Positions 10,701 through 29,084 of a DNA stretch of 64,000 bases are shown here, in pieces. The DNA lies in the NCBI GenBank assembly GCA_945878865.1, contig CAMCUD010000019.1, forward strand, positions 1-64,000, in the 5' to 3' direction. The notes beneath the pieces are model-generated. The model ran no database searches. It was not told where the DNA came from and saw only the letters and a list, made by a program, of their open reading frames with translations. How positions within the stretch are numbered: the stretch's first letter is position 1; every line of letters starts with the position of its first letter. The stretch comes from Bifidobacterium breve. GTDB taxonomy: Bacteria; Actinomycetota; Thermoleophilia; Solirubrobacterales; Solirubrobacteraceae. The position numbers and the translations under genes were made by a program.

Positions 10701-13700
10701 CGAGAACATCACGTGGGACGACGACTCAGGCGACACAGACACCGTCGTCGAACCCGGCTACGCCGTCGTGACCATGGGTGACGGGTCAGAAATCGTGTTC
10801 TCCCAGACCGGCGATGCCCCCGCCAACTTCACGCCCGAAGCCGGCCTGGAGGACCTGCGCCTCGAGCGGACCGCCGGGACTGCCGAGGCTCCGACCGAAT
10901 TCGCCCTCACCGACGAAGACGGACAAGAGGTCTTCACGTTCAAAGCCAACGGCACGCCGAAGACCTACGAGATCTCCGCCGTGAAGTCCCTGGGCACTAA
11001 CGCTCGAGAGCTCAAGTATCAGTGGGGGGTGTCCGGCGGAAAGCGGGTCTTGTACCGGATCGTCGCGCCTGCGGCAACCGGCGTGACCGGTTGCGACAAG
11101 CCGGTCAACCAGACGCCGCCGGTGTATCCGGAGAACGGGTGCCGCTGGCTGGACCTCGAGTACTCGAATGGGCTCTTGCAAGCGGTCAAGTTCCGCGCGT
11201 ACAACGCCGCGGGCTCAATGGAGACGCGGACGATGGCGTCGTACGCATATTGGCCCGACGGGCGCCTGAAGTCCATGACGGACGCCGCAGGTCTAACCAC
11301 CGAGTACGAGTACCAGACGGTCGCTGGCGCCGAGCCCAAGCCGACCCTGTTGAACAAGATCGACCCGCCAGGCCCCGACCTGCCATGGACGATCAACTAC
11401 CAAAGCGAGGCGACAGACAAGGACCCCGGCCGGCTCCTGAACGTCCAGCGCCCGACGCTCGCGCCCGCAACAGGAACGGCCACGACAAAGCTCGACTACG
11501 AGATCCCGCGCTCCAACCAAGCACCCGACAACGGGCCCTGGGACATGCGACCCGCCACGTTGCAGGACCTCGGACAGAACGACGTCCCGATCGACGGCAC
11601 CGCGATCTACACGGCCGACGTCTCGACCTCAACCAACCCGCAGGACGCCACGGTCCACTACCTCAACGGGCAGGGACGCACCGTGAACACCGTCAGCCGA
11701 GGCCCCGATGACGCATGGGCAAAGGTCTCGATAACGGAGTACGACGCGTACGGCAACATCACCCGGCAGATGACCCCGGAGAACCGGCGGGCAGCCAAGG
11801 AAGCGACGCTGACAGCCGGCGAAACACGCGCCGAACGAGCGCGGGCGCTCAGCACCCTCCGAGGGTATGAGACCAACGATGCAGGGTCGCGCATGGCCTG
11901 GGAGATGGGGCCACGCAAGGACGTTCGCATCTCCGGGCAGACCGGCACCGTTCCGGCCCGACGTCACACCGTGTACGTCTACGACGAGGGCCGCACGGTC
12001 GGAGACACCAAGAACTACAACTTCCCGACGACGACCACCGTCAGCGCCTTGAAGGGCACCGACTACAGCACGCCTGCGGCCTTGATCACCGACGATGTGG
12101 ATCGACGTGTCAGCAAAGCCACGTACGACTTCGCTAAGCGCGTCCGGCTCGAATCCGTCACGGACCCCGGCTCGAGTCCGAACCTGAACCTGCGAACAAC
12201 GACCGCCTACGACGACCAGGGCCTCGTCACCGAGGAGCGGATGCCTCGCAACCCCGGTGGGGGGGATGCTTCGGCACGGCGCACCGTGTACTACACCGGC
12301 GACAACAGCGCCTCTGTCACTGAGTGCAGAAACAAGAAGCACTGGGCCGGATTCATCTGCCAGCACCGGCCGGCAGCGCAGCCCGGCACCACCGGACTCC
12401 CCGAACTCCCCATCACGACCTACGAGTACAACGCGCTTGGGGAGGTCTCGAAGGAAACCGACATCGTCTCCGGCACACCGTCGGCGACCAGGACGACGAC
12501 AACGACCTTTGACACTCTCGATCGCCCGAAGCGCGTCGCGACCACCAGCTCAGGCACAAACCCAGGGGCGTCGCTCCAAGACATCGAGACCGTGTACGAC
12601 GCCGCGACCGGCCGAGTCACCGAGACACAGCAGAAGACCGGCACGACGACCGTACGTGCAATCAAGCGTGAGTACGACGCGCTCGGACGCATGTTCAAGT
12701 ACACCGACGCTGACGGCCTCGTCACGACAACGTCGTTCGACATCCTCGACCGTCCGGTCGCCATCAGCGACACTAAGAACGGTTCACCGCAGCAGGGAAC
12801 TCGGACGCTGCAGTACGACACTCGCACGGGTGCCGTCGCCGGAGTGACGGACCCTGCGCTCGGCCAGTCCAGTGGCTCATCATCGATCGTGGGCGTGTAT
12901 GACCTTGACGGCCGGCTGACCTCCCAGACGTTCACCAAGTCCGGGGTCAAGATGGGCCTCGCCTATGACGCCGAGGGCGCGGTACGTGCGAGGGAGTACA
13001 CCAGCGGGGCAACGCAGCTCCACCGCTCGGAGGCGGTCCGCTCGATCCACGGAGAGATCCTCGAACAGACGTCCCGCAAGACCGGGCAGGTCCAGACGAA
13101 CTCGGCGTACGCCTACGATGCGGCCGGGCGTCTCGTCAAGTCTGATGGGACGGTTGACGGGCAGTGCACCGTTCGTCTGTACGCCTACGGGCACTCGACG
13201 GAGACCACGCCGGCGGGTGCCGACAGCAACCGCACTCGGCTCACGACACGGGCGCCGGCAGGTGGCGGCGCGTGCGCAACCAGCGGTGGGACCGCGACCG
13301 ACTACACGCATGACATCGCGGACCGGATTACCGGCTCCGGCATCGCCTACGACGCGTTCGGACGGATCACCTCGCTGCCTGCATCGTCGGCAGGCGGCGC
13401 CCAACTGACAACGAGCTACTACGTCAACGATCTCGCCCGCACGATCACACAGTCGGGGAAGACCACGACCATCGCACTCGACCCCGCCGACCGCGTAAGG
13501 ACCCGCGACATCAGCGGCACCGACAGCTACACCGAGACGGTGCACTACGCCGCCGACGGCGACGAACCCGCGTTCACTCTTCGCGGGACCGCGATGACGC
13601 GCGAGATCAGCGGACTCGACGGCGACCTGGCCGCGATCAGCACACCCAACGACGACGTCAAACTGCAGCTCACCGACGTCCACGGCGATCTCGCCGGAGA

Positions 13701-15036
13701 AGCGGACAACACCCCAACCCCGGCACCACCGGCCTTCCTGGTCGGAGGAGACGAATTCGGCGTCCCGAGGCCGATCCCCGGCGGCCCACCAATCATCAAG
13801 ACCGGCGTCACGTCAGCCGCCACCGGCCCGCCCGTCGCTTCGTCGCTGTCCGTCACACGTCCCGCAGTGCAGAACGGCGACCTGCTGCTAGCCAGCATCA
13901 TCGCCGGAGAGAACGGCACCATCACGCCACCTTCAGGCTGGACCGCCGTCACCGGATCAGAAACCGGAGCCCACGATGCGCGTCTGAAGCTCTACTACCG
14001 CTACGCGACCGCAAGCGAACCCTCGAGCTACACCTTCTCGTTCTCAACCTCCTCGCAGCACATCGCCAGCATCACCACGCTGCGCAACACGGCTTCCTCG
14101 AATCCGATCGACGTCATCGCGACCGCAAGCGGGACAAGCAACTACGCACCGTCACCGTCCGTCACCCCAACCAAGCACAACGCCGCAATCCTCAGACTCG
14201 CCGCGAGCTCAAGCCCGTGGCCAACGGTCGAGACGGGCAGCGAAAGCGGCCAGTACCTCGGCGGCCTTGAATCGTGGGCGTTCGGAACGCCGCCTATCCT
14301 CGACTGGGACGAATACGCATACGACGAGAGCTGGGGCTTCGAGCTCAGCGCGGCCGGTTCTCTCACCATCCGCGTGGCCGGCAAGAACAGCCCGAGCGGC
14401 GCCCTCAACGTTGTAAGCCAGCCTGCAGACATGGGAGCGCCGACCGACTCCGTTACTGCCGCAATCGCCGCCAGCAATACGAACGCGCTCAGTCGCTCGA
14501 GCTACCGCTACCTCGCCGGCAAGCAACGCCACACGACCACCGACACCGGAGTCATCGAGATGGGAGCACGGATCTACGTCCCACAACTCGGACGATTCCT
14601 CCAGCCCGATCCCGTCTACGGCGGATCCGCAAACCGGTACGACTACGCGTCCCAAGATCCCGTCGGTAACAACGACCTCGACGGCCGCGCCTGCCGCTCT
14701 CGCGACAAGATGTGCAAGCGGGCCAAGGCGGTGCACGCCCGCAACATGAGACTCGCGCGACAGATCGCCAACAACGCTGCGCGAATCGCGAAGCGGATCC
14801 AGCGCTCGCAGGCATCAAAGGACTCGAAGCGTGCCGCGCGCGCCGCGGCCAGAATCGCCAAACGCAGCGTGCGGCAGATTGCGCGGGCAATCACGGAAGG
14901 AATGAAAGTGAGTCCGGTCGGATACCTCGGGTGCAACACGGTGCATGCGTGGTTGGACAAGGACAACTCCGTAAGCGACTCAGTGAAAGACGCGTTGATC
15001 GAATGCACCGGCCTCGGCATGTTCGTGGACCCATGA
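7786..15036 (+). CDS. Giant RHS/YD-repeat polymorphic-toxin-like secreted protein (2416 aa)
   Basis: RHS/YD proteins build a hollow beta-cocoon that encloses a C-terminal effector. ATG 7786 was chosen over TTG 7783 because GGGAG lies just upstream. A signal peptide covers residues 1-28. The N-terminal half (about 30-880) has adhesin-like beta regions. A DUF6531-like start of the RHS region (VDLQTGAFSLSSTDV) lies near residue 900, followed by many YD repeats (YDALGR, YDAAGRL, YDAFGRI). The RHS core signature (ARIYVPQLGRFLQPDP, ending YDYASQDPVGNNDLDGR) is at about 2260-2300. A 230-residue beta-rich domain (about 2003-2235) interrupts the core. The tail (about 2300-2416) is a Lys/Arg/Ala-rich helical region ending in a hydrophilic 40-residue stretch with two Cys. 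The stop overlaps the next gene by four bases. The effector activity is unknown. Confidence 0.9.
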   Translation: MSRATLWGWPGLALAVTVWLFSATGAAGQAPLGGAALSLAPNDQAASPRPSSEAVSKVTQAAQTEIQRREAELSSAAKRAERRESRGRFKGLGGRAAVDVGRRFFPVLQRPSWAPVDARAGVTPLRYLDDHTFVAVDGAGADSRRAVVVSDTPFWGENREGQVERLDVSLVPQGEAVVTKNAPVNVRIGRSATDGVEFEDAAVRLRPTVDAPEPPTAVVTEDRVTYTNLARDTDLAISPLPNGVQTHHILRSEAAPEILSFDVALPDGARIEQGEHGTLSIVGMKEQIGTITAPIAVDAQGQTVPARLRLDGQRVSLEVEHRSADLAYPIMVDPNFVLDQYQDDGAGLPNQGWGFHSPWPTKFSGEFRTISPTVTEKYVYANGGAYINHTEWGWLEYDAPHLAAGGQGFVYKTQFYNVSHSPQNTCMTLGIYDREAQTWPSTGSHHAYNIGANTGPLVQCGALAGWVVDVCGDGYAASGNCWNAPARSQANMQIWAWGNGTRANDAWVGVGSTAVFLRDNDNPVITTTSVPGGGQWHNPGPLEQQLNFTMSAYDPGLGMKSTSVRVDTTDLPSTLGCTGTVDNPCPRDQPLAKTHQLADGEHDVTFSATDILMNTTTGTTQKVRIDRGAPQVKLSGPLSARIGDSATSSATRAVRDATKLTIDITDGTASAPRSGIKTASFTLTRDGTTPPSGVVPADIPQSECPTPGVCTAKQRTLTTPSQAGLYLLTINAQDWAGNSIAPKTIYFRVAAGKITSVVEGQRSSRYVTLKATPPAGAQNVVFEYRANGGAWGSLPESMTKQGPLDPVTWPVATSKTLVWDIVRQYTGNIGTSTNGGSTDATGVVGLVNGGIEAYKPFEVRARFPNGTADPVDDPTSDELRMEYDPSGDGTSNSRETVGPGSVDLQTGAFSLSSTDVSVDAYLTNLELTRTYNSRTRLQTGAAVGPLGPGWTLGIPSIEGSEYQKVHYEPPVVENITWDDDSGDTDTVVEPGYAVVTMGDGSEIVFSQTGDAPANFTPEAGLEDLRLERTAGTAEAPTEFALTDEDGQEVFTFKANGTPKTYEISAVKSLGTNARELKYQWGVSGGKRVLYRIVAPAATGVTGCDKPVNQTPPVYPENGCRWLDLEYSNGLLQAVKFRAYNAAGSMETRTMASYAYWPDGRLKSMTDAAGLTTEYEYQTVAGAEPKPTLLNKIDPPGPDLPWTINYQSEATDKDPGRLLNVQRPTLAPATGTATTKLDYEIPRSNQAPDNGPWDMRPATLQDLGQNDVPIDGTAIYTADVSTSTNPQDATVHYLNGQGRTVNTVSRGPDDAWAKVSITEYDAYGNITRQMTPENRRAAKEATLTAGETRAERARALSTLRGYETNDAGSRMAWEMGPRKDVRISGQTGTVPARRHTVYVYDEGRTVGDTKNYNFPTTTTVSALKGTDYSTPAALITDDVDRRVSKATYDFAKRVRLESVTDPGSSPNLNLRTTTAYDDQGLVTEERMPRNPGGGDASARRTVYYTGDNSASVTECRNKKHWAGFICQHRPAAQPGTTGLPELPITTYEYNALGEVSKETDIVSGTPSATRTTTTTFDTLDRPKRVATTSSGTNPGASLQDIETVYDAATGRVTETQQKTGTTTVRAIKREYDALGRMFKYTDADGLVTTTSFDILDRPVAISDTKNGSPQQGTRTLQYDTRTGAVAGVTDPALGQSSGSSSIVGVYDLDGRLTSQTFTKSGVKMGLAYDAEGAVRAREYTSGATQLHRSEAVRSIHGEILEQTSRKTGQVQTNSAYAYDAAGRLVKSDGTVDGQCTVRLYAYGHSTETTPAGADSNRTRLTTRAPAGGGACATSGGTATDYTHDIADRITGSGIAYDAFGRITSLPASSAGGAQLTTSYYVNDLARTITQSGKTTTIALDPADRVRTRDISGTDSYTETVHYAADGDEPAFTLRGTAMTREISGLDGDLAAISTPNDDVKLQLTDVHGDLAGEADNTPTPAPPAFLVGGDEFGVPRPIPGGPPIIKTGVTSAATGPPVASSLSVTRPAVQNGDLLLASIIAGENGTITPPSGWTAVTGSETGAHDARLKLYYRYATASEPSSYTFSFSTSSQHIASITTLRNTASSNPIDVIATASGTSNYAPSPSVTPTKHNAAILRLAASSSPWPTVETGSESGQYLGGLESWAFGTPPILDWDEYAYDESWGFELSAAGSLTIRVAGKNSPSGALNVVSQPADMGAPTDSVTAAIAASNTNALSRSSYRYLAGKQRHTTTDTGVIEMGARIYVPQLGRFLQPDPVYGGSANRYDYASQDPVGNNDLDGRACRSRDKMCKRAKAVHARNMRLARQIANNAARIAKRIQRSQASKDSKRAARAAARIAKRSVRQIARAITEGMKVSPVGYLGCNTVHAWLDKDNSVSDSVKDALIECTGLGMFVDP

Positions 15037-16248: not shown

Positions 16249-16608
16249 ATGCGCACGAGCACCTACCGCGTCGGAGAGCACGAGGTCGCCGTCTCCGCGA
16301 TCGTCCTCGAGGACGCCGACGCCGAACGCGAGGCCATGCGACGCGCCACCAACGAGGGCGGGATCAGCGTGTACACCGCCGAGCGCGCCTGGTCGGAGAG
16401 CGTTCTCATCATCGTCGGCCCCGAAGAACCCGTCACAAGAGCGACGGAGAGTGTCCGTGATCTCGGGCCATCCCTGAGCCTCGGCGATCTTCAGGCCACC
16501 GCGATCGCCGACCGCTGGCTGCAGACCCTGCACACCGCGCGCGAGCGCGGCGACCGCTCCGTCACGCAACGCGTCCGGTGGCCCCGCCGCCACGGCGGCG
16601 ACCAGTGA
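16249..16608 (+). CDS. Hypothetical cytoplasmic protein (119 aa), first gene of a coupled pair
   Basis: No family recognised. The protein has no signal peptide or membrane segment. The first 65 residues alternate beta and charged helix (EDADAEREAMRRA), and the tail is Arg-rich. GTG 16240 in the same frame is an alternative start three codons upstream. Its TGA overlaps the GTG of the next gene by four bases, so the pair is probably co-translated and works together with the PilZ-like protein. Confidence 0.5.
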   Translation: MRTSTYRVGEHEVAVSAIVLEDADAEREAMRRATNEGGISVYTAERAWSESVLIIVGPEEPVTRATESVRDLGPSLSLGDLQATAIADRWLQTLHTARERGDRSVTQRVRWPRRHGGDQ

Positions 16609-16928
16609 CACCGCCGGCGCGCCGGCGCGCCCCGCGCCGCGCGGCCGGGTGCCCGGTCACCGTCACCACCCGCGACACCGTGGCGATCACGACGGTCACC
16701 ATCGACGTCAGCGCCCGCGGCACGCGCATCCACGCCCCCGACAGCCACGAGCTCATCGTCGGCGCCCGAGTGAGGGTCGACCTCGGCACCGACACGCACC
16801 CCGTCGTCCTCGACGGCCAGATCATCAGGATCACCACCGAAGTCATCGCGATCGAGTGGCCGCCTCCTGCGCTCGCGGTCGCCCAGCAGATCGCCGCGCT
16901 CACCGACGTCCACGCGTCCACGCGCTGA
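16605..16928 (+). CDS. PilZ-like small beta-barrel protein (107 aa)
   Basis: GTG 16605 is chosen over an ATG at 16578 because it overlaps the previous stop (GTGA). After an Arg-rich leader (residues 1-14) the sequence TIDVSARGTRI (about 32-42) matches the D-x-S-x-x-G core of PilZ domains. It is followed by strands like those of PilZ (RVRVDL..., GQIIRI..., AIEW). PilZ domains bind cyclic di-GMP through an RxxxR plus D/NxSxxG pair; arginines upstream could supply the first part, but the spacing is not classical, so binding is uncertain. An HD-GYP phosphodiesterase-type gene lies 3 kb away, and GGDEF genes lie near 41-44 kb. Function inferred: c-di-GMP effector or degenerate relative. Confidence 0.5.
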   Translation: MTPPARRRAPRRAAGCPVTVTTRDTVAITTVTIDVSARGTRIHAPDSHELIVGARVRVDLGTDTHPVVLDGQIIRITTEVIAIEWPPPALAVAQQIAALTDVHASTR

Positions 16929-17353: not shown

Positions 17354-19666
17354 CTAGATGTAGTACCAGCCGTAGGGGAGGACGCAGATCAGCGATGAGC
17401 TGCCGTCTTGCCACGTCCACCGGCGCGGCGTTCCGCCGACGTTGCGGCAGTTCTGGATCCGGCGCTGCAGATCACGGCGCACCGCCGCGCGCTGGCGGCG
17501 CAGCCTCGCCGCGGCACGTCGGTCGCGAGCGCGGCTCTCTGCTCGACGAAGGCGCTGGCACTGCGCCTTGGAGATTGTCCGGATGCTGCCGCGGCGGGTG
17601 TACTCGTTGCCGTCGTCGTCGGAGGCGGTGAGGGTGAAGCGGTAGCGGCCGCCGCCGTACTTGCAGGTCCAGTCGAACGTGATGGACCCGTCGGTTTGTG
17701 GTCCCCATCGGAAGTTGCGGACCTGCTCGCGGCCGCCGCGGCGAAGTGACAGCCGGAGGTACGCGTAGGCGTTGGTCTTGACGATGAGCTTCGAGTATCC
17801 GGGGGTGCGACTGCTGCGGATCCGATACGACCGCGTTCTGACCTTCAGACCGTCGACGGGCGGGCCCTTGATGCGGAACCGGACGGGGTCGCTCTCTGTC
17901 GAACGGCCGTCCGGAAGGCGACGCACGACCGACCACTGGTAGCTGCCAGGCCATAGCGGGTCGTTGAACTGTGCGCGCGCGATGCCGTCTTTGATCTTGA
18001 ACTGCGCCTTCTGGTCGGCCGGCTCGTATCCCTTACGCGTGCTCGAGGGTTCGTCCGCGGTGTCGTCGTAGTAGTCGTCGGCGCTGTCGACGTCGGCCTG
18101 TTCGTCGGTCGTGGGCACCCACGTCCCGTCTGCGGCGACCAGTGCAAGGACCTTGCCTTCACGGTCGCTGAGGTGCAGCTCGTCGGTGTAGCGCTGAGAA
18201 GTGGGCCACGCGAAGACCGGACGCCGTCCCTCCAGCCAGCCCGATGCCGCGCCGAACGCCGGGAAGGGCGACACGAGGGGCAGCAGGGGCATACGGACCT
18301 GTGCTGTCGTGACCACCCTTCCGACGCTGTTGCGCACGGCAGCGCAGAGCGTCGCCTCGGGCGATTCGGGCATCTCGAACCGGTAGACCTTGGAGTAGGG
18401 CCCACCGGGGAGATCGTCGCTGGCCACGGACGCCTCACGATCGAGGCTGGGGCATGTCGTGCCGCTCACCACGTCCACGGCCAGAGCAGCAGCCTCCTCG
18501 GTGGTTCCCTGAACCGTGAACGCGCGGGCTTCCCTGCGCAGGTACGGCGAGGTGTCACCGGAGAACACGATCGTTGCGTTCATCGACCGGATGCCAACCG
18601 TTGTCTCGCTGCGCGCCGATGCGCTCGCCGACTCGGACTTAGCGACGTACGCGCATACTCGGTAGGTCCCTGCCGTGCTCGGGATGAACGCGGTCTTCAA
18701 CGAGAATGCCCCCTCGATGTAGCGGCCGTAGGCGGTCAACGCGTCTGCCCCTGGCGGTCGCCCGCCGAACGACGGGGCACAGCCGTCGGCCGTCGTGGCA
18801 TAGGCGTACAGGTAGCGCGGGACCTCGGTGGTCCCCGAGATCGTCACGTCGACGGCGCGCTGGTCAACCCGGTTTGCGCCAAAGTCCACTGCCAGTGTCG
18901 CGGTGCTCGCGCGCGCCACGAGGAGGGCTTCTGAGATGCCGTCGGGGGAGCCATCCTCGCTGTCAGCGATGTAGACGCAGACTCGGTAGGCGCCCGCGTC
19001 CGGTGGGAAGAACGCCGAAGCTTCGGAGAACGCGCCGGCATCGATATAGCGGCCGCTGGAGTACCACAGCTGCGGGGCGCCTAGCGGCCGGTCGGCGTAG
19101 CGCGCAGTGCATGTCCCGGAGGTGACGAAGCCGTAGAGATACCGCGACACCTCGGTGTTGCCGGTGATCGTCACCGGAATGCTGCGGTTCTCCGTCGGGT
19201 CAGCTCCGAACGTGATGGCAGCAGAGGCGGCGTTCCCGCGTGCCGTGAACGTGGCTTGCCCGGTCGCAGCTGGAGTAGATGTCTCGCTGGATGCTAGGTA
19301 GGCGCAGACGCGATACAGCCCGGTCTTCGACGGTGTGAACGCGGTGGCTTGCGAGTAGGTCCCGCTGGAGACGTAGCGGCCGCCGCCGTACCAGAGCTGC
19401 GGCTCGCCGGGGGCGCGGTCCGCGTACCGGCTGGCGCAGCTTCCTGCCCGCGTCACGTAGCCGAAGAGATACCGGGCGGACTCAGTCGTTCCTCCGACCG
19501 TCATCGACACGCTGCGGTCCTCGACGGGGTCAGCGGCCACTGAGATCGAGACGGTCGCCGCCCGAGCGGGCCCGGCGGCCATGAGCAGGGCGACGAGGGC
19601 CAGCAGGCAGGAAAGCGAGGCAAAGCCCGGAGCGGTCCGAGATCCCGAGGAGCGAGGAAGGGACAT
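17354..19666 (-). CDS. Secreted repeat protein with four Ig-like units and a basic coiled C-terminal region (770 aa)
   Basis: ATG 19666 gives a clear signal peptide (about residues 14-37, ending GPARA-A). Three close repeats of about 108 residues follow, marked by GTTESARYLFGYVT, YADRxxGxPQLWY, GRY and YRVCAYxAxSE, and then a fourth, diverged copy. Each close unit has Cys pairs that could form a disulfide. After about residue 440 comes an Fn3-like beta region with an acidic loop (SADDYYDDTADE). A second beta domain follows, then a basic helical segment of about 45 residues rich in Arg/Ala, and a Cys-containing end (LICVLPYGWYYI). No enzyme signature. Likely an exported structural or adhesive protein; role unknown. 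Confidence 0.8.
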   Translation of the reverse strand: MSLPRSSGSRTAPGFASLSCLLALVALLMAAGPARAATVSISVAADPVEDRSVSMTVGGTTESARYLFGYVTRAGSCASRYADRAPGEPQLWYGGGRYVSSGTYSQATAFTPSKTGLYRVCAYLASSETSTPAATGQATFTARGNAASAAITFGADPTENRSIPVTITGNTEVSRYLYGFVTSGTCTARYADRPLGAPQLWYSSGRYIDAGAFSEASAFFPPDAGAYRVCVYIADSEDGSPDGISEALLVARASTATLAVDFGANRVDQRAVDVTISGTTEVPRYLYAYATTADGCAPSFGGRPPGADALTAYGRYIEGAFSLKTAFIPSTAGTYRVCAYVAKSESASASARSETTVGIRSMNATIVFSGDTSPYLRREARAFTVQGTTEEAAALAVDVVSGTTCPSLDREASVASDDLPGGPYSKVYRFEMPESPEATLCAAVRNSVGRVVTTAQVRMPLLPLVSPFPAFGAASGWLEGRRPVFAWPTSQRYTDELHLSDREGKVLALVAADGTWVPTTDEQADVDSADDYYDDTADEPSSTRKGYEPADQKAQFKIKDGIARAQFNDPLWPGSYQWSVVRRLPDGRSTESDPVRFRIKGPPVDGLKVRTRSYRIRSSRTPGYSKLIVKTNAYAYLRLSLRRGGREQVRNFRWGPQTDGSITFDWTCKYGGGRYRFTLTASDDDGNEYTRRGSIRTISKAQCQRLRRAESRARDRRAAARLRRQRAAVRRDLQRRIQNCRNVGGTPRRWTWQDGSSSLICVLPYGWYYI

Positions 19667-19796: not shown

Positions 19797-21176
19797 ATGC
19801 CCGTCACGCGTCACATCCACACCACATCACGGGTGGCGATCGCCAACATCATCGTCACCGTCGCGCTGCTCGCCGCCAGCGCGCTGGCCAGCGCGACGAT
19901 CGCCCACCCGGTTCCCGCCGCGCTCCTGCTCGCGTTCGCGGCGATCAGCGAACTGATCTCGGTCCCGCTCTCGAAGGGGCGGCTCAGCGGATGCTTCGGC
20001 GCCGTGCTGGTCATCGCCTGGATGTCCGGTCCGCTCGCCGGCGCGATCGCCGCGATCCTCGTCACCCTCATCGACGCCGTGAAGCACCGGTCCGACCTCG
20101 CGCGCGCGGCGGTGAACACCACCGGCCTCGCGCTTGCCGCGACCGCGGCCGGCGCGATGAGCACGATCGCCGTCAAGAACGGGGTCGGCCTCGACGACGG
20201 CTGGTTCGCCGTCGTGTGCTTCGGCTCGTACCTCGTCGCGATCTGCCTGGAGTTCTGGTGGGTCTACAGCTTCGACCTCGGCGACGGTGTCGACCGCCTC
20301 ACGAAGATGACCCGGGAGGTCCTCCTGCCGCTGATGCCGCAGTTCGCGTGCATGGCATGCGTGACCGCGGCCGTCCCGCTGCTCTACGCACAGCTCGGCG
20401 CGCTCGCGCTGCTGCTGGTGTTCATCGTCCTGCTGAGCTTCCAGAGCCTCGTGCGCGAACTGCTCATCTCCCGTCGGCGCGCAGAGCGCCTGGACGAGAG
20501 CGTCCGCGAGATCGCCGAGCGCGAAGCGGCGTTCGAGAAGCTGAGCTTCGGCGCGCTGCGCGCCCTGGTGCAGTCGATCAACCTCCGCGACCGCATGACC
20601 GCCCGGCACTCCGGTGCCGTGGCGAAGTACGCCCGCGAGATCGCCCGCGAACTGGGGTGCAGCGAGCAGGACCTCGAGCTCGTGCACATGGCGGGCCTGC
20701 TGCACGACGTCGGCAAGCTGATCTTCGACGACGCGATCCTGACCGGCACCCAGCGGCTGACCGACGAGCAGTTCGAGATCGTCAAGCGCCACCCCGGTGT
20801 CGGCGCCGAGCTCGTGCGGGGCATGCCCGGCTACGAGCAGGTCAGCGACATCATCCGCCACCACCACGAGCGCATCGACGGGCGCGGGTACCCCGACGGT
20901 CTCGCGGGCGATGACATCCCGCTGCTGAGCCGGTGCATCAGCGTCGCGGACACCTACGACGTCATGACCGCGCGGGACTCCTACCGCAAGCCCGTCCCGC
21001 GGGCGGAGGCGATCGCCGAACTGCGCCGCGTCTCCGGCGCCCAGCTCGACGGCACCGTGGTGGAGGCCTTCGTCGACGTTCTCGCACGGACGGACCTGTC
21101 CTTCGACCATGCGAGCTCCACCGACTTCGCGCGCCAGCTGGAGATGCAGCCCAGCCGCACGCGGGCCGCGGCGTGA
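19797..21176 (+). CDS. Membrane HD-GYP domain protein (459 aa)
   Basis: ATG 19797 is preferred to 19716 because upstream codons overlap the divergent promoter region and lack a ribosome site. Residues 12-220 form about six to seven membrane helices (a MASE-like sensor). A short coiled linker (225-248) leads to an HD-GYP domain: HD at 303-304, HHHE at 355-358 and DGRGYP at 361-366, all intact. HD-GYP proteins hydrolyse cyclic di-GMP or related cyclic dinucleotides to GMP or pGpG. The signal sensed by the membrane part is unknown. A terminator-like hairpin follows, so it is probably monocistronic. Confidence 0.93.
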   Translation: MPVTRHIHTTSRVAIANIIVTVALLAASALASATIAHPVPAALLLAFAAISELISVPLSKGRLSGCFGAVLVIAWMSGPLAGAIAAILVTLIDAVKHRSDLARAAVNTTGLALAATAAGAMSTIAVKNGVGLDDGWFAVVCFGSYLVAICLEFWWVYSFDLGDGVDRLTKMTREVLLPLMPQFACMACVTAAVPLLYAQLGALALLLVFIVLLSFQSLVRELLISRRRAERLDESVREIAEREAAFEKLSFGALRALVQSINLRDRMTARHSGAVAKYAREIARELGCSEQDLELVHMAGLLHDVGKLIFDDAILTGTQRLTDEQFEIVKRHPGVGAELVRGMPGYEQVSDIIRHHHERIDGRGYPDGLAGDDIPLLSRCISVADTYDVMTARDSYRKPVPRAEAIAELRRVSGAQLDGTVVEAFVDVLARTDLSFDHASSTDFARQLEMQPSRTRAAA

Positions 21177-21357: not shown

Positions 21358-22527
21358 ATGACCCGCGGCCCGCTGCGACTCGCCGTATTCCGCAGGCTGC
21401 TCGGCGTCTACACCGCCGACCAGATCATCGACTGGATCGCGTCGATCGCGCTCATGATCCTCGTCTACGACCGGACCAGCAGCGCGCTGGCTACCGCGGC
21501 GCTCCTGCTGTGCAAGACGTTCGCTCCAGCGCTGCTCGTCCCGCTCCTCGCAGCGCGAACCGACCGGGCCAGCGTCCGCACCGTCGTCGCGGCCAGCAGC
21601 GCGCTCGCCGCCGTCGCCCTGGCCATCCTGGCGGCAGGGCCGCCTCACGCGCTGTGGCCCGCGACGCTCCTGCTCGGTACCGCGGCGCTGCTGGGCCGCT
21701 CGACGATCCGCGCCACGGTCCCGCTCACCCTCGCGCCGGACGACCTCAAGCTCGGCAACGGCGCCCTCAACGTCGCCAGCGCCGCGCTCACCGCCACAGG
21801 GCCGCTCGCCGGCGCCGCGGCCGTCGTGACGCTCGGGGCGGAGAGCACCCTGCTGCTCGCCTGCGCGATCGCAGCCGCCGCGGCGGTCATCACGGCCGCG
21901 ACGTTCCCCGACATCCGCGCCGACCACGACCCCGACCAGCCGGGGGAGACCATCACCGAGCCCACCCGGGGGATGTGGGTGCTGCTCGCAGGCGCGGCCG
22001 CGCTGATCCTTCTGTTCAGCATGGACGAGCCCGCGCTCGTCGCCTACACCCGCGAGAGCCTGGACGCGGGTGACGTCGCGTACGGGATCCTCGTCTCCGC
22101 ATGGGGTGTCGGCCTGCTCATCGGCAGCGCCGCGTACTTCCGCCTTCGCCACGTCCCGTCCGTCGCGCTCGTGACCCGATCGGCTGTCGTGATCGCCGCC
22201 GGCTACCTGACCGTCGGCCTCGCGCCGACCACGGCGATCGCCGCGGTGGCGTGCGTCGTGTGCGGCGCGGGCAACGGCACCATGCAGGTCGCGCTCATCA
22301 CCGCCGTCCAAGAAGCCGTGCCTGCCCAGCTGCAGGTCCGCGCCGCCGCATGGATCGAGGCGATTGGCGCTGCCGCGGCGGGTCTCGGGTACCTGGCCGG
22401 CGGAGCGCTCGCCGCCGGGATCTCACCGCGCGCCCCGTTCATCGTCGGCGGCCTCCTCGCCCTCGCCGTCACCACCACCATGCTCGTCGCCCTGGTCGCC
22501 GGAGCGCGGCCGCGCACCGCCCGCTGA
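21358..22527 (+). CDS. Major facilitator superfamily transporter (389 aa)
   Basis: ATG 21358 begins with the usual MFS start (PLRLAVFRRLLGVYTADQI); an earlier in-frame ATG at 21307 adds only 17 polar residues. About ten to twelve hydrophobic helices are visible, with a central polar break near residue 190-200 (DIRADHDPDQPGETITEP). A cytoplasmic basic loop (ARTDRASVRT) corresponds to the loop between helices 2 and 3 found in MFS exporters. The MFS_1/enterobactin-exporter-like group without known substrate fits best. It stands alone between two hairpins. Confidence 0.85.
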   Translation: MTRGPLRLAVFRRLLGVYTADQIIDWIASIALMILVYDRTSSALATAALLLCKTFAPALLVPLLAARTDRASVRTVVAASSALAAVALAILAAGPPHALWPATLLLGTAALLGRSTIRATVPLTLAPDDLKLGNGALNVASAALTATGPLAGAAAVVTLGAESTLLLACAIAAAAAVITAATFPDIRADHDPDQPGETITEPTRGMWVLLAGAAALILLFSMDEPALVAYTRESLDAGDVAYGILVSAWGVGLLIGSAAYFRLRHVPSVALVTRSAVVIAAGYLTVGLAPTTAIAAVACVVCGAGNGTMQVALITAVQEAVPAQLQVRAAAWIEAIGAAAAGLGYLAGGALAAGISPRAPFIVGGLLALAVTTTMLVALVAGARPRTAR

Positions 22528-22568
22528 CCGGGCCGCGAAAGAAGAGGGGGGGTCCACAGGGCGGCCGT

Positions 22569-22721: not shown

Positions 22722-23009
22722 GTGACGGGCTCGCCTCCCATGAACACGCGCCCGCTCCCCGCCCGGCATGGCGGGGAGCGCAGCGCGCCCACCGGACGCG
22801 TCCTGCGCCGCGAACACCCCCGCATCGTCGCCTACGACACCGACCTCGACCTGTCACCGGCCGGACGGATCGGCGGCTGGTTCACCAACCTCATCGACGC
22901 GCAGATCCACGCCGAGCTCGGCCAACGCGACGTCGCGATCCTGCGCACCGACGACCGGCTCTGGCTCGCCGCGCTCGAACTCGCCGACCCCACCGAGGCC
23001 GCGAGATGA
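22722..23009 (+). CDS. Hypothetical protein (95 aa), first gene of a three-gene coupled operon
   Basis: Start chosen at GTG 22722 because GGAGGG (22707-22712) lies nine bases upstream; ATG 22740 (89 aa) and ATG 22602 (135 aa, AGGAG eleven bases upstream) are alternatives. The conserved-looking part is RIVAYDTDLDLSPAGRIGGW followed by a helix and an alpha/beta segment (DVAILRTDDRLWLAALELAD). No family known. Its stop overlaps the next ATG (ATGA). The operon ends in an excisionase-like gene beside the attachment site, so a role in element maintenance is possible. Confidence 0.5.
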   Translation: MTGSPPMNTRPLPARHGGERSAPTGRVLRREHPRIVAYDTDLDLSPAGRIGGWFTNLIDAQIHAELGQRDVAILRTDDRLWLAALELADPTEAAR

Positions 23010-23512
23010 CCTGCAGCGTGCGCACCCTGCTCGCCGAACCGCGGCCGCGCACCCCGCACGTCTGCCACGGCCACCACGACGAAGACGCCGTCGCCGAGTG
23101 GCACCGCGGACTTGCGATCCTCGTCAGACGCCTTGACGGCGCCGAACGTGCCCTGCAGCGCACGCTCGAGCGCCCCCGTGACGGGCTGCTGCATCCCGAG
23201 GAATGCATGCGCCACCTGCGCCGCGCCACGTCGCAGATCACGCAGCTCACCACGTGCGCCTGTGCGATCGACGAGCCCGGCACACTGCTCGCCGCCGGAG
23301 CATCGCTCGCGCGCGTACGCGCGGGAGCGGTCATGTGCAGCGGCAAGGCCATGGGCGCCGAGTCCCGGCAGGCGCTCATGATCGAGGCGTCCGTGATCAC
23401 GTCCGACGCCCTCACGGCACTCTGGACCGTCCTGGACGAGCCCGATCTGTCACGCGCCGTTCCGGCCCGAGATGAGCGCCCCCCGGCGCGCGCGACGCTG
23501 TGCCGAGCATGA
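23006..23512 (+). CDS. Hypothetical helical protein (168 aa), second gene of the coupled operon
   Basis: No recognised family. Largely helical and soluble, with a His/Cys-containing N-terminus (CHGHHDEDAVAEWHRGL) that could bind metal and further Cys in LTTCACAIDE. ATG 23006 overlaps the preceding stop, and its own stop overlaps the ATG of the excisionase-like gene (23509). Such tight coupling of three short genes suggests one functional unit. Confidence 0.5.
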   Translation: MTCSVRTLLAEPRPRTPHVCHGHHDEDAVAEWHRGLAILVRRLDGAERALQRTLERPRDGLLHPEECMRHLRRATSQITQLTTCACAIDEPGTLLAAGASLARVRAGAVMCSGKAMGAESRQALMIEASVITSDALTALWTVLDEPDLSRAVPARDERPPARATLCRA

Positions 23513-23727
23513 GTACCGATGTGAACATGCCGGACGACCTCGACTTCCCGCTCTTGGATGCAGAGCAGGTGAGCGAGCTGCTTGGCGGCGTCCCGCCCAA
23601 GACGATCCGCAACATGGGTCGTGAGGGCCGTCTGCCCTCAGTCGTGATCGGCCGCCGGCGGATGTACAGCCGCCGGCAGATCGAACGCGTTGTGGCCGAA
23701 GCCGCACGGCGCGGCCGCCCCATCTGA
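23509..23727 (+). CDS. Excisionase-like helix-turn-helix protein (72 aa)
   Basis: The fold is a MerR/Xis-type winged helix: LLDAEQVSELLGG (DNA-recognition helix-turn-helix), VPPKTIRNMGREGRLPS (turn and second helix), VIGRRRMYSRRQIERVV (wing and tail). Size and layout are those of excisionases that bend DNA at att sites and steer integrase. ATG 23509 overlaps the upstream stop; the in-frame GTG at 23500 is less likely. It lies 270 bases from the tRNA-Asn fragment with four direct heptamers between them. No integrase is visible on this side. It could also be a simple repressor of the same fold. Confidence 0.75.
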   Translation: MSTDVNMPDDLDFPLLDAEQVSELLGGVPPKTIRNMGREGRLPSVVIGRRRMYSRRQIERVVAEAARRGRPI

Positions 23728-23857
23728 GACAAGGCCTCGTCGCAGAAGCCGACGCTGCTCGCGAAGCGCCAGTCGGCGCGGGGCGCGGCGCGCCTGCCAC
23801 CGGGGCCTGCCACTGTCTCCTATGCCCGTCGTCGAGGCGACTCGTCGCGACGCGCGC

Positions 23858-23906
23858 TTGTGCTCTGGCTTGTGCTCCAGATGTCTCGTTGTGCTTCGCT
23901 TGTGCT
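23858..23906 (+). repeat. Four direct TTGTGCT heptamers, possible integrase/excisionase arm sites
   Basis: TTGTGCT occurs at 23858, 23870, 23889 and 23900, all in the same orientation, with start-to-start distances of 12, 19 and 11 bases. The first two extend to CTTGTGCTC. They lie in non-coding DNA between the excisionase-like gene and the tRNA-Asn fragment, where tyrosine-recombinase elements keep direct-repeat arm-binding sites. Confidence 0.55.
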
Positions 23907-23993
23907 GGATTCGGTGGCGCCGGTGGGCCGAAATCGTCCGCAAAATGCGGGCTCCGGGACTAGCTGGCCCCCACGGGCCGTTCGACCACTTAG

Positions 23994-24035
23994 CTGTTAA
24001 CCGAAGGGTTGTGGGTTCGAGTCCCACCCCCGGAG
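23994..24035 (+). pseudogene. 3' half of a tRNA-Asn(GTT) gene, probable att site
   Basis: From the anticodon loop CTGTTAA (23994-24000) to the discriminator G (24035) the sequence is a normal tRNA-Asn: anticodon-stem 3' strand CCGAA, variable GGGTT, T-stem GTGGG / CCCAC with loop TTCGAGT, acceptor strand CCCCGGA. The 5' half does not fold: the bases before the loop (CTTAG) cannot pair with CCGAA and no D-arm is present. TCCGGGA at 23953-23959 looks like a 5' acceptor but is too far away (83 nt in total) and has one mismatch. A 3' tRNA fragment beside an excisionase-like gene is the usual mark left by an element integrated in that tRNA. Confidence 0.75.
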
Positions 24036-24041
24036 TCCCAC

Positions 24042-24067
24042 GTGAAGCCCGCTCCGGCGGGCTTCAC
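24042..24067 (+). terminator. Hairpin following the tRNA-Asn 3' end
   Basis: GTGAAGCCCGC (24042-24052) pairs perfectly with GCGGGCTTCAC (24057-24067) around a TCCG loop; a T-rich TGCTTCTC follows. Six bases after the tRNA end, it is most simply the original tRNA-Asn terminator, which places the chromosome side to the right. It can also end the leftward pseudokinase gene whose stop is at 24088. Confidence 0.75.
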
Positions 24068-24087
24068 TGCTTCTCGCCCGTGCTCGG

Positions 24088-25206
24088 TCAGGCCACGACG
24101 TAGCCGACGCGCTCCAGGCCCTGGATCCGCCGCTGCAGGAACGCCTCTCGGCGGCGGACCAACTCCCGCCCTCGTGCGAAGGCCCCGGCATCGCCGTCGC
24201 GCGCCCCGGCGGCAAGCGTGCGGTAGGCGGCCTCGACGTCGCGCATCATCGCCGCGATGCCTCGCTTTGTCAGCAGGGCGCGTTCAGGCGAACGCGTGGC
24301 GGCGACGGAACGCGCCGCAAGGCCATAGGCGTCGCCGAGGGATGTCGCGGCGCGCGCCTGGCCCGTGGAGGTCCGCGCGCGGGCCAGACGGGTCCGCCGC
24401 GCGATCCGCCGCGTGTTGAGCTTGCGCATGGTCTCGCGCATCGAGGTCGCGAACGCGACCTGCTGACCCGTGGCGATCGCGGCGCTGTCGATCTGCGGCA
24501 GCGCGCGGATCGGATCAGGCGCGGCCGGGGTCGCCGTCCCGCCGGAGGCGACGGCCACGATGATCCCGACCACGAACGCCGCGAGGGCGCCGAGTCCGAC
24601 GAGGACGGCGCGGGGCTGACGCAGCGCCGCGGCGGCTGCGCCGCCGCCGGCCGATGGGCTGGGGGCTGAGGTCTGCGGTCGCGCGGCGTCACCGGCGACG
24701 GCCTCCTGGGCCCGCGCGAGGAGCTCGGACGGGGTCACGGGCCGCTGCATCGGGTCGTCGGCGAGGGCATCCCAGAGGAGCGCACTCAGCCGGGGACCGA
24801 GCGCTCGGGCCCCGTCGGCCGGGGGAAGCGTCGACAGCGTCCACGGCGGGGGAGACTGGCCGGTGACGGCGGTGCGCAGGAGCCCGGCGATCGCGTACAC
24901 GTCCGATCGCGCGGAGGGGCGCGAGCCGGGCGTGAGCTCGGGCGCGCGAAACGGCGCTGGGCCGGCGGCAGGGGTGACATCGGCGCCCAGGCCGAGCGCC
25001 GCGAGCACCGCGCCGTCGTCGCCACCTGCCCGCGGCGCGGACACACCGGCGACTCGTGCACTGTCCAGCGCGTCCGGCAGCGGCGTGAGAAGCTCGACGG
25101 CGTCCTCGGGCGACAGCCCGCCGCGCGCCTCGAGCGCAGCGCGCACGATGTCGGCGACCGTGGTCGCGGCGTCACGTGAGGTGTCGCGGTCCATCGCTCG
25201 CGCCAT
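24088..25206 (-). CDS. Membrane pseudokinase, short form (372 aa), cassette copy A
   Basis: Only a kinase C-lobe remnant remains: FRAPELTPGSRPSARSDVYA (86-105; the APE and SDVYA boxes) and a closing WDALADDPMQRPVTPSELL (145-163). There is no glycine loop, VAIK lysine, HRD or DFG, so it cannot phosphorylate. A membrane helix lies at about 200-221. The outer part (255-372) is a basic helical domain containing RRTRLARARTSTGQAR and VRRREAFLQRR, closely matching the tail of the larger pseudokinase at 29649-31967. It starts two bases after the stop of the small membrane protein gene, within a PKD protein / single-helix protein / pseudokinase cassette. ATG 25194 is an alternative start. Inferred role: scaffold or sensor across the membrane. 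Confidence 0.75.
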   Translation of the reverse strand: MARAMDRDTSRDAATTVADIVRAALEARGGLSPEDAVELLTPLPDALDSARVAGVSAPRAGGDDGAVLAALGLGADVTPAAGPAPFRAPELTPGSRPSARSDVYAIAGLLRTAVTGQSPPPWTLSTLPPADGARALGPRLSALLWDALADDPMQRPVTPSELLARAQEAVAGDAARPQTSAPSPSAGGGAAAAALRQPRAVLVGLGALAAFVVGIIVAVASGGTATPAAPDPIRALPQIDSAAIATGQQVAFATSMRETMRKLNTRRIARRTRLARARTSTGQARAATSLGDAYGLAARSVAATRSPERALLTKRGIAAMMRDVEAAYRTLAAGARDGDAGAFARGRELVRRREAFLQRRIQGLERVGYVVA

Positions 25207-26821: not shown

Positions 26822-28036
26822 TTACACCGCGGGCGCCATGCTGCCGGCACGCCGGCGCTCGAGGTGCTCCTCGAGCACGTCGACCGCCCGCTCGCCGCCC
26901 TCGTGCGCGGCGACCCACGCCTGCGCCTCGGCGACGCGGCGGCCGATGTCGTCCCGCGCCAGCGCCCGCCCGACGGCCAGGCCGACAGAGCGCGGCGTGG
27001 TGGCCCGGCGCGGCAGGCGCACGCCGACGCCGGCCCAGTCGATCCGGGCGGCGTTCTCGTTCATGTCGCCTCCGGCGGGAACCGCGACGAGGCGGCATCC
27101 CGAGGCCAGCGCGCGCACGACCGTTCCGTGCCCGGCGTGGCAGACGACGACATCGCACTCGGGCATGGTCCGCGCGTAGGACACCCATTCGACTAAGCGG
27201 GTGTTGTCGGGGATCTCCAGCGGGTCCTTCAGCGGCCGCCGGTTCCACGTGGCGAGGACGCGGACCGGGAGCTCGCCGAGGCCTTCCACAGCGGCGCGCA
27301 GCAGGCGGTGGCGCGGATCCTGCGACGTCGACGGGGCGACGAGCACAAGCGGCGCGTCGCCGGGCGGAAGCTCGACCTCCTCGGCGGGTGGCTCCCACAG
27401 CAGCGGGCCGATGACCTTGACGTGGTCACGCCACGTCCGCGGGTACTCGAGCTGCGGCATGGTCGCCACGAGCACGAGTTCGTCGCTCTGGCCGTTGTGG
27501 ACCCACATCCGCGGCGGCAGCCCCACGAGCTCGCGCGTCTCGTTGCACTCGCGCATCCCGCGGGCCAGACCGGCGTCGAGGGTGGGGCGGGTGCCGCGCC
27601 ACAGGGCGCGGCCCAGCCCCGTGCGCGGCAGCCGCGCCCCCAGGGAGTACGGGGGCCAGCCGTCCAGGGGGGCGGGGTAGACGTGGGGGACGAGCGTGGC
27701 GACCGGCAGCCCCGCGAGCTCACCGGCGAGCGCCGGGGCCAGCGTGAGGATGTCGGCGACCACGAACTCCGCGTCGGACGCCTCCACGACCTCCTGCGCC
27801 TGCCCGGTCGCCGCCGCCACCGCCTGGTAGGGCTTCAGCGGCACGCCGTTGGTCATCTCCGGCGTGTACTCGGGCGCCGCGAAGAACCGGAAGCCCTCCC
27901 GCTCGGCGTGCGCCCGCCACTTCTCCGCGGTGTGCATCGAGACGTCGTGGCCTCGGCGGCGCAGCGCACCGCCGAGGGCCATGAGCGGGAAGACGTGTCC
28001 GGGGTCGCCGAACGCGCCGAGCAGGAACCGCGCCAT
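26822..28036 (-). CDS. UDP-glycosyltransferase-like enzyme, GT1 family (404 aa)
   Basis: GT-B fold enzyme that moves a sugar from a nucleotide donor to a small acceptor such as a lipid, terpenoid or polyketide. The N-terminal Rossmann half starts FLLGAFGDPGHVFPLMALG, the typical GT1 opening with the catalytic His in GHVFPL. The donor-binding C-terminal half shows VVCHAGHGTVVRAL and VAVPAGGDMNENAARI, which match the HxGxGT and P..DQ..NA boxes of macrolide-type glycosyltransferases. It starts seven bases after the stop of the LLM oxidoreductase gene, so the two form an operon. Substrate unknown. Confidence 0.9.
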   Translation of the reverse strand: MARFLLGAFGDPGHVFPLMALGGALRRRGHDVSMHTAEKWRAHAEREGFRFFAAPEYTPEMTNGVPLKPYQAVAAATGQAQEVVEASDAEFVVADILTLAPALAGELAGLPVATLVPHVYPAPLDGWPPYSLGARLPRTGLGRALWRGTRPTLDAGLARGMRECNETRELVGLPPRMWVHNGQSDELVLVATMPQLEYPRTWRDHVKVIGPLLWEPPAEEVELPPGDAPLVLVAPSTSQDPRHRLLRAAVEGLGELPVRVLATWNRRPLKDPLEIPDNTRLVEWVSYARTMPECDVVVCHAGHGTVVRALASGCRLVAVPAGGDMNENAARIDWAGVGVRLPRRATTPRSVGLAVGRALARDDIGRRVAEAQAWVAAHEGGERAVDVLEEHLERRRAGSMAPAV

Positions 28037-28043
28037 GCGGCGC

Positions 28044-29084
28044 CTACGCCTCCTCGGCCAGCCGCGCGACGATCTGCAGCTGGCGGATGCGCTCGGCCTT
28101 GTCGAAGGCCATCGGGCTGAGGTTGAGCGTGTGGACCCCAGCGTCGCGGTAGACCCGCAGGCGCTCGCGCACGACGTCCTCCGGGCCGCACAGCGTCACG
28201 AGGTCGAGGAGCTCGCCGGGGATGGCGGCGCACGCCTCTTCCTTCTTGCCGTCGAGGTAGAGGTCCTGGATCTCCTTCGCGGCGGCCTCGAAGCCGTAGC
28301 GCTGCATGAGCTGGTTGTAGAAGTTCTTGTCGCGGGAGCCCATCCCGCCGACGTACAGGCCGACGATCGGGCGCATGGCGTCGCGGGCGGCGTCGAGGTC
28401 GTCGCTGACGAGGACCTGGACGTTCGGCGTGATGCGGAAGCCCTCCAGTGAGCGGCCGGCCTTTGCCGCGCCCTCTTCGAGGCTCTCCCGCTGCATCGGC
28501 AGGTGCTCGGGGGAGAGCAGCATCGGCAGCCACCCGTCGGCGATCTCGCCCGCCAGCGCGGTGTTCTTCGGCCCGATGGCCGCGAGCAGGATCGGGATCT
28601 GCTGCTGGACCGTGCCGATCGTGAGCTTCAGCGCCTTGCCGGGCCCGTCGGGCAGCGGCAGCTCGAGCGTGTCGCCGTGGTACTCGACCCGCTCGCGCGC
28701 GAGCGCCTTGCGGACGACGGCGACGTAGTCGCGGGTGCGGGCGAGCTGCCGGGCGAAACGCTGCCCGTGCCAGCCCTCGGCGACCTGCGGGCCAGACGAG
28801 CCGATGCCGAGCAGCATCCGCCCGTCGGAGAGCTGGTCGAGCGTCGCGGCCGTCATCGCCGTCATCGCCGCCGAGCGGGCGGGCATCTGGAAGATCGCCG
28901 ACCCGACCTTGATCGTCGACGTCTGCGCGGCGATCCACGCGAGCACGGTCGCGGCGTCGGAACCGTAGGCCTCCGCGGCCCACACGCTGTCGTAGCCGAG
29001 CCGCTCGGCCTCCTGGACGATCTCCAGCTGGTCGGCGCTGGTGAGCCCGAGCCCCCAGTAGCCGATGTTGACCCCGAGCTTCAT
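28044..29084 (-). CDS. F420-dependent LLM-class oxidoreductase (346 aa)
   Basis: ATG 29084 is chosen because AAAGGGA lies about nine bases upstream, dropping 13 codons of the open frame. It is a luciferase-like TIM barrel: MKLGVNIGYWGLG (first strand), DSVWAAEAYGSDAATVLAWI, IKVGSAIFQMPARSAAMTAM, LGIGSSGPQVAEGW and a C-terminal CGPEDVVRERL. These are the marks of the F420-dependent methylene-tetrahydromethanopterin-reductase-like group common in actinobacteria, which reduces or oxidises diverse small molecules with F420. Paired in an operon with the glycosyltransferase, it may modify the same metabolite. Confidence 0.88.
   Translation of the reverse strand: MKLGVNIGYWGLGLTSADQLEIVQEAERLGYDSVWAAEAYGSDAATVLAWIAAQTSTIKVGSAIFQMPARSAAMTAMTAATLDQLSDGRMLLGIGSSGPQVAEGWHGQRFARQLARTRDYVAVVRKALARERVEYHGDTLELPLPDGPGKALKLTIGTVQQQIPILLAAIGPKNTALAGEIADGWLPMLLSPEHLPMQRESLEEGAAKAGRSLEGFRITPNVQVLVSDDLDAARDAMRPIVGLYVGGMGSRDKNFYNQLMQRYGFEAAAKEIQDLYLDGKKEEACAAIPGELLDLVTLCGPEDVVRERLRVYRDAGVHTLNLSPMAFDKAERIRQLQIVARLAEEA

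What the first reader, a model, noticed from the sequence alone, without database searches (positions are those of the whole stretch)
23509..24067. Right end of an integrated element: excisionase-like gene, 3' half of tRNA-Asn and a tRNA-type terminator
Seen: only the 42 nt from the anticodon loop to the discriminator match a tRNA-Asn; the 5' half is unrelated. An 11-bp hairpin follows six bases later, and a Xis-like gene lies 270 bases to the left. Known: elements integrating in a tRNA 3' end leave a 3' fragment at one end and an intact tRNA at the other. Inference: the accessory genes to the left (RHS, Kelch, subtilisin, HD-GYP and others) may be one island whose integrase and intact tRNA-Asn lie beyond position 1.
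Basis: partly seen in the sequence, partly recalled or inferred. Interest (0 to 1): 0.7.

Follow-up and report, generated by a model that had tools for sequence, protein, structure and literature searches.

The report
Right end of tRNA-Asn conjugative island
The tRNA fragment marks one end of an at least 80-kb piece of mobile DNA, apparently able to excise and to transfer itself by conjugation, that has inserted into the only tRNA-Asn gene found in a Svornostia-like bacterium; the mechanism is well known, but in this little-studied group it carries an unusual fused coupling-protein/relaxase gene.

Summary
The window is the start of contig C19. An intact tRNA-Asn on another contig, C17, shares an 80-bp repeat (one mismatch) with window 23993-24072: 43 nt of tRNA from the anticodon loop onward, plus the 11-bp hairpin terminator. 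A tyrosine recombinase gene starts about 120 bp from that tRNA. Both element ends carry GCTTGTGCT-type arm sites, including one 19-bp exact repeat. In relatives the outer flanks are neighbours: dgt-dnaG-tRNA-Asn lies within 3 kb of the window's glycosyltransferase in 25 of 26 Solirubrobacterales loci, with no island between. C17:1-56.4 kb, C19:1-24.07 kb and an unsequenced gap therefore form one island of at least 80 kb. It encodes VirB4-like, M23 and coupling-protein genes, the last fused to a Replic_Relax (MOB_C-type) domain, so it is a putative T4SS-type ICE; RHS, Kelch, subtilisin and HD-GYP are cargo. xis and int sit at opposite ends and become neighbours across attP in the circle. Excision and transfer are inferred. 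The island is a new member of a known kind; the fused coupling-protein/relaxase, also seen in some relatives, is the only mildly unusual part.

The parts
23993..24072 (+). attR core: 80-bp direct repeat of C17:56439-56360 (attL), one mismatch at 24054
23993..24035 (+). displaced 3' fragment (43 nt, anticodon loop to discriminator) of the only tRNA-Asn(GTT) found in the genome
24042..24067 (+). 11-bp hairpin terminator of the tRNA, duplicated with the repeat
23856..23906 (+). element-side arm: three GCTTGTGCT sites (23856, 23868, 23898), presumed integrase/Xis arm-type sites
   Evidence: 5 of the 6 copies in 187 kb lie at the two element ends, 0.74 expected in all
23868..23886 (+). 19-bp exact repeat GCTTGTGCTCCAGATGTCT, also at C17:56322-56304 between attL and int
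23509..23727 (+). excisionase-like gene (72 aa, HTH_17/MerR-type helix-turn-helix)
23006..23512 (+). island gene of unknown function; relative at the end of a sister element in G002 (tRNA-Gly)
22740..23009 (+). island gene of unknown function; 62% identical relative in the G002 sister element
21358..22527 (+). MFS transporter, island cargo, relative in the G002 sister element
19797..21176 (+). HD-GYP-type HD domain protein, cargo
17354..19504 (-). PLL-domain protein, cargo
16605..16928 (+). PilZ-domain protein, cargo
8131..15036 (+). large RHS-repeat protein (2301 aa), cargo
5743..7443 (-). subtilisin-family (S8) protease, cargo
653..5611 (+). Kelch/laminin-G giant protein (1652 aa), cargo
24088..25194 (-). 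first chromosomal gene outside attR; relatives in G001 and G002 (about 50% identity)
26822..28036 (-). glycosyltransferase, chromosomal flank; neighbour of tRNA-Asn in relatives
28044..29084 (-). chromosomal flank gene (LLM-class oxidoreductase by recall), conserved next to the glycosyltransferase
37569..37641 (+). tRNA-Met, part of the conserved chromosomal order in relatives

Best explanation
Window 23993-24072 is attR of an integrative and conjugative element of at least 80 kb inserted at the 3' half of the host's tRNA-Asn gene. attL is C17:56439-56360, where the element's own copy of the 3' half restores the tRNA and its terminator. The element is C17:56396 down to C17:1, an unsequenced gap, then C19:1 to about 24,072. 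Inferred working: the tyrosine integrase (C17:54912-56279, minus) recombines attP with the tRNA-Asn attB at the anticodon-loop end of the repeat. The Xis-like protein (23509-23727), with Int bound at the GCTTGTGCT arm sites at both ends, directs excision. In the circle the order is xis-attP-int, so integration separates int from xis and places int behind tRNA-Asn and its terminator. A type IV secretion module (VirB4-like, M23 peptidase, coupling protein fused to a MOB_C-type Replic_Relax domain) would transfer the circle. Shown: repeat, intact tRNA, integrase, arm repeats, conjugation genes, empty sites in relatives. Inferred: excision, circle, transfer, and the C17-C19 join inside the element.
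For: 80-bp direct repeat with intact tRNA-Asn on C17. Integrase with PF00589 at 87.9 bits (cut-off 27.1), the TGLRIGE / HDLRHTFG / MGH..Y motifs and PHROG integrase E 4e-54, about 120 bp inside attL. GCTTGTGCT motif: 5 of 6 copies in 187 kb at the two element ends, expected 0.74 in total, plus a 19-bp exact repeat. S. abyssi G001, a single contig, carries the C17 flank genes on one side of tRNA-Asn and the C19 flank genes on the other. In 25 of 26 Solirubrobacterales loci tRNA-Asn lies within 3 kb of the C19 glycosyltransferase orthologue, next to dnaG/dgt of C17. Island genes have lower GC3 (median 0.873 vs 0.932, p 6e-12) and lower GC (0.69 vs 0.72). VirB4-like, coupling-protein/Replic_Relax and M23 genes, collinear in G001, G013 and G031. 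Relatives of this integrase lie beside other tRNA genes (Arg, Gly, Met).
Against: The interior is not contiguous: C17:1 ends inside a subtilisin gene and shares no overlap with C19:1, so other contigs may lie between. A misjoin or two separate elements cannot be fully excluded. The first gene after attR has its G001 relative about 9 kb from tRNA-Asn, so the local flank has changed since the split. No excised circle, oriT or transfer was observed. The VirB4 match is far below NCBIfam's curated cut-off (105 vs 643 bits).
Confidence: 0.9

Rival explanations
1. A non-conjugative genomic island or degraded remnant: integrase and xis are real but the element is no longer self-transmissible, or the conjugation genes belong to a second, nested element in C17.
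For: The C17-C19 gap is not closed; attL and the conjugation module are about 25-37 kb apart on C17; no standard HUH relaxase family hit in 58 of 61 island ORFs scanned.
Against: All recognisable transfer and recombination genes are intact open frames; att repeats are nearly identical and arm sites match at both ends, suggesting a recent or maintained element; the conjugation module is collinear with those of other genomes; no second integrase within the C17 part of the island.
Confidence: 0.25
2. Integrated temperate prophage at tRNA-Asn.
For: Tyrosine integrase, Xis-like gene and tRNA 3' site are also the prophage pattern; the radical-SAM mobile pair gene next to int is mobile-element associated.
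Against: No capsid, portal, terminase or tail family in 58 of 61 island ORFs scanned with Pfam; VirB4-like and coupling-protein genes present instead.
Confidence: 0.03
3. The fragment is a tRNA pseudogene left by an unrelated duplication, with no island.
For: tRNA fragments can arise by duplication; the left and right copies differ by one base.
Against: Integrase next to the intact copy, matching arm repeats at the inner side of both copies, and the conserved empty-site order in relatives are not explained by duplication.
Confidence: 0.02

Closest known systems
tRNA-integrated genomic islands as catalogued in Islander (PMC4383910)
   Same: Intact regenerated tRNA at the integrase end, displaced 3' fragment at the other end, anticodon-type crossover site, tyrosine integrase.
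   Different: The repeat extends past the tRNA through the terminator; here the ends lie on two contigs.
T4SS-based ICEs of Actinobacteria (PMC3218068)
   Same: int + coupling protein + VirB4-like ATPase; tRNA 3' end integration (att repeats of similar length occur in the same study: 81 bp in the Frankia AICE Fean6303).
   Different: No MOB_F (TrwC) relaxase; the relaxase-like domain is Replic_Relax (MOB_C type) fused to the coupling protein; xis and int are at opposite ends; host is a Solirubrobacteraceae relative, outside the Actinomycetales.
AICEs such as pSAM2
   Same: Tyrosine integrase, Xis, tRNA 3' end site in Actinomycetota.
   Different: No FtsK/SpoIIIE-type translocase or RepSA/Prim-Pol replication gene was seen; far larger.
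IMEs with PF13814/MobC relaxase in streptococci (PMC5357655, PMC12479173)
   Same: Replic_Relax family protein used together with a VirD4-type coupling protein.
   Different: There described as separate relaxase and coupling protein, not one fused chain; here also a VirB4-like gene in the same element.

Membership tests
tRNA-integrated genomic island | Intact tRNA gene at one end and displaced fragment of the same tRNA at the other | tested here: met
tRNA-integrated genomic island | Site-specific integrase gene next to the intact tRNA | tested here: met
   C17:54912-56279, PF00589 87.9 bits; motifs
tRNA-integrated genomic island | Empty site in relatives joining the two outer flanks | tested here: met
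   25 of 26 loci with tRNA-Asn within 3 kb of the C19-side flank gene; G001 on one contig
tRNA-integrated genomic island | Both ends on one replicon with the element between them | tested here: inconclusive
   Ends lie on contigs C17 and C19; no overlap at C17:1/C19:1
T4SS-type ICE | VirB4-like ATPase | tested here: met
   C17:28410-31136, TraC/VirB4 E 5e-35 and 3e-30 but below curated cut-offs
T4SS-type ICE | VirD4-type coupling protein | tested here: met
   C17:18434-21580, PF10412 37.6 bits (cut-off 20.5), PF12696 27.5 (cut-off 22)
T4SS-type ICE | Relaxase | tested here: inconclusive
   Replic_Relax PF13814 35.3 bits (cut-off 25.3) fused to the coupling protein, with conserved PD..ExD..K residues; counted as MobC relaxase in PMC5357655; no HUH relaxase found; fold search only matched the winged helix
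T4SS-type ICE | Excision and conjugative transfer | not testable with these tools
   Needs circle PCR and mating
AICE (pSAM2 type) | FtsK/SpoIIIE translocase and RepSA/RepAM/Prim-Pol replication gene | tested here: not met
   No such Pfam hit in 58 of 61 island ORFs; gap not covered
Temperate prophage | Virion structural and packaging genes | tested here: not met
   None in 58 of 61 island ORFs (same calls); gap not covered
Excisionase (Xis/RDF) | Small HTH protein of HTH_17/excisionase type next to att | tested here: met
   HTH_17 35.5 bits above cut-off; TIGR01764 16.6 below its cut-off 28.8; excisionase PHROGs E 2e-6 and 1e-4

The most novel reading that the evidence does not exclude
The element represents an undescribed ICE lineage of Solirubrobacterales in which the coupling protein and a MOB_C-type (PD-(D/E)XK-like) relaxase are one polypeptide, and in which integration splits xis from int so that int expression can depend on whether the element is integrated or circular.
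Probability: 0.35. Interest if true: 0.5.

Novelty: new member of a known kind. Interest (0 to 1): 0.35.

Why it matters
It explains why a cluster of RHS, Kelch, subtilisin, c-di-GMP and restriction genes lies beside core genes: they ride on one mobile element. It also gives an exact attachment site, integrase and candidate arm sites for a group (Solirubrobacterales) for which the literature searches here found no described ICE. If the coupling-protein/relaxase fusion is functional, it would be a compact link between DNA processing and secretion and is easy to test.

Tried and rejected
1) That attR-left is a decayed tRNA-Asn 5' half: TCCGGGAC-TAGCT resembles it, but 8% of shuffles do as well, and the Rfam tRNA-Sec (14.8 bits) and istR hits are below gathering scores. 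2) Joining C17:1 to C19:1 by end overlap: none. Finding the rest of the cut subtilisin on another contig: no convincing contig-end match. 4) The 9-kb stretch next to tRNA-Asn in G001 as a second element: read by eye it encodes GGDEF/EAL, periplasmic-binding and chemoreceptor-like genes, with no integrase, and has only paralogue-level matches in G000. 5) G002 as a clean empty site: its contigs stop inside the tRNA (C217) and inside the first flank gene (C187), so it is uninformative. 6) Prophage and AICE readings (no virion or FtsK/Rep genes). 7) Fold search for the Replic_Relax domain returned almost only winged-helix matches to residues 18-111; the putative nuclease part was barely tested. 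8) Plasmid records hold only weak relatives of integrase and VirB4.

Full report
Observation. ARAGORN reports no tRNA-Asn in the window, only tRNA-Met at 37569. A search of the window's own genome (G000, 79 contigs; the window is C19:1-64000, so the contig starts at window base 1) with 23900-24067 gives one other match, C17:56365-56439, minus strand. That place holds an intact tRNA-Asn(GTT), C17:56397-56469. The two copies share 80 bp with one mismatch: window 23993-24072 = C17:56439-56360, from the anticodon loop through the discriminator and the whole hairpin terminator. The terminator is an 11-bp stem, -24.2 kcal/mol, z -6.0. The 5' side at 23930-23992 is not a tRNA half: a short resemblance exists but is not significant.

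The other end. The gene next to the intact tRNA, on the terminator side, is a tyrosine recombinase (C17:54912-56279, 456 aa from the second ATG; PF00589 at 87.9 bits against a cut-off of 27.1, PHROG integrase E 4e-54). The R..HxxR..H..Y motifs can be read in the translation. Relatives of this integrase in other genomes lie beside tRNA-Arg, tRNA-Gly and tRNA-Met genes, the pattern of a tRNA-targeting integrase family.

Arm sites. The 9-mer GCTTGTGCT occurs six times in the 187 kb of C17 and C19: twice between attL and int, three times between xis and attR, once elsewhere; 0.74 copies would be expected in all. One pair extends to 19 identical bases, GCTTGTGCTCCAGATGTCT, at window 23868-23886 and C17:56322-56304, where it covers a possible start codon of int. 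Matching repeats on the inner side of both att copies are what integrase arm-type sites look like; binding itself is inferred.

The outer flanks belong together. G001, identified through its public record as Svornostia abyssi J379, has in one contig the C17-side genes on the 5' side of its tRNA-Asn and the C19-side genes on the 3' side. It has no truncated tRNA-Asn copy there. Across the order, 32 retrieved loci with tRNA-Asn include 26 that also contain the orthologue of the window's glycosyltransferase (26822-28036). In 25 of these the two lie within 3 kb of each other, next to dnaG and dgt of the C17 side. The tRNA orientation differs in some of them. The ancestral order dgt-dnaG-tRNA-Asn-glycosyltransferase is therefore interrupted exactly at tRNA-Asn in this genome. 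One local difference remains: in G001 about 9 kb of other genes lie between the tRNA and the first C19 flank gene, with no integrase read in it and no orthologous copy in G000.

What the island is. Inside lie C17:1-56,396 and C19:1-23,992, at least 80 kb. Island genes have lower third-position GC than the flanks (median 0.873 against 0.932, p 6e-12; GC 0.69 against 0.72). Gene calls were made with a simple codon-score finder, so small genes and starts are approximate. The C17 part encodes a VirB4/TraC-like ATPase (28410-31136), an M23 peptidase (26346-28391), and a 1048-aa protein with coupling-protein domains PF10412/PF12696 followed by Replic_Relax PF13814 (18434-21580). It also has an MmeI-type IIG restriction-methylation enzyme (34825-37533), a RecD2-like helicase and, next to int, the radical-SAM mobile pair DUF5131/TcmP. 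The conjugation genes are collinear in G001, G013 and G031, and a VirB4 relative occurs in 7 of 61 genomes (this one included) at E 1e-40 or better. The published criteria for T4SS-type actinobacterial ICEs are int, coupling protein, VirB4-like protein and relaxase (PMC3218068). The first three are met; the fourth depends on whether the Replic_Relax domain acts as a relaxase.

The fused coupling protein/relaxase. PF13814 is classed as a MobC-type relaxase in streptococcal IMEs (PMC5357655), and MOB_C relaxases are related to PD-(D/E)XK nucleases (PMC12857230). Aligned with relatives, the domain keeps PD..ExD..K. The same two-domain layout was found by Pfam in G013, by alignment of both halves within one open frame in G031, G007 and G035, and many Solirubrobacteraceae genomes have PF13814 in frames of about 1200-1340 codons. 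In high-GC DNA long open frames alone are weak evidence, so how common the fusion is stays open. A structure model of the C-terminal 349 residues is confident (pLDDT 85.6), but its matches cover mainly the winged-helix part.

How it works, and what is inferred. Int would recombine attP with tRNA-Asn; the element's identical 3' half keeps the tRNA intact, which matters because only one tRNA-Asn was found. The Xis-like protein would direct excision. In the circle the order is xis-attP-int with both genes reading the same way, so integration separates them. A sister element in G002 carries relatives of the three genes at window 21358-23512 beside a different recombinase-like gene at tRNA-Gly, so the recombination module appears to be exchanged between elements; the arrangement there was read from sequence. 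No excision or transfer has been observed.

Limits. C17:1 breaks inside a subtilisin gene and C19:1 shares no overlap with it, so the interior join is inferred from the two att ends and the flanks; further contigs may lie between. 58 of 61 called island ORFs were scanned with Pfam. The verdict is a new member of a known kind: a tRNA-Asn ICE in a poorly sampled order.

Noticed in passing
C17:18434-21580 (L056:434-3580): Coupling protein fused to a Replic_Relax (MOB_C-type) domain with conserved PD..ExD..K residues; similar long open frames in other Solirubrobacteraceae genomes.
   Followed up: partly
L043:3500-7060 (G002:C75): Relatives of window genes 21358-23512 beside a different recombinase-like gene at a tRNA-Gly(GCC): a sister element with another integration module.
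   Followed up: partly
G000:C15:32863-34107 and C15:100898-101491: A second tyrosine integrase and a stand-alone Replic_Relax gene on the same contig: possibly another mobile element in this genome.
   Followed up: no
L005:12948-14717 (C17:52948-54717): Radical-SAM mobile pair-like DUF5131 protein and three-Cys-motif partner TcmP next to the integrase; both also match candidate defence families in PADLOC.
   Followed up: partly
window 24088 and L058:1740-10800: About 9 kb of GGDEF/EAL, periplasmic-binding and chemoreceptor-like genes lie between tRNA-Asn and the flank gene in Svornostia abyssi but not in the window genome: a small-scale hot spot or deletion.
   Followed up: partly
L042 end (G002:C217:96180): The G002 contig stops inside tRNA-Asn, within the anticodon-loop end of the repeat, as expected if that genome also has a repeated tRNA-Asn 3' half.
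   Followed up: partly
L110, L112, L137 (genome contigs): Three records titled Bifidobacterium breve MAGs encode Solirubrobacterales-like dnaG-dgt loci: likely mislabelled records.
   Followed up: no
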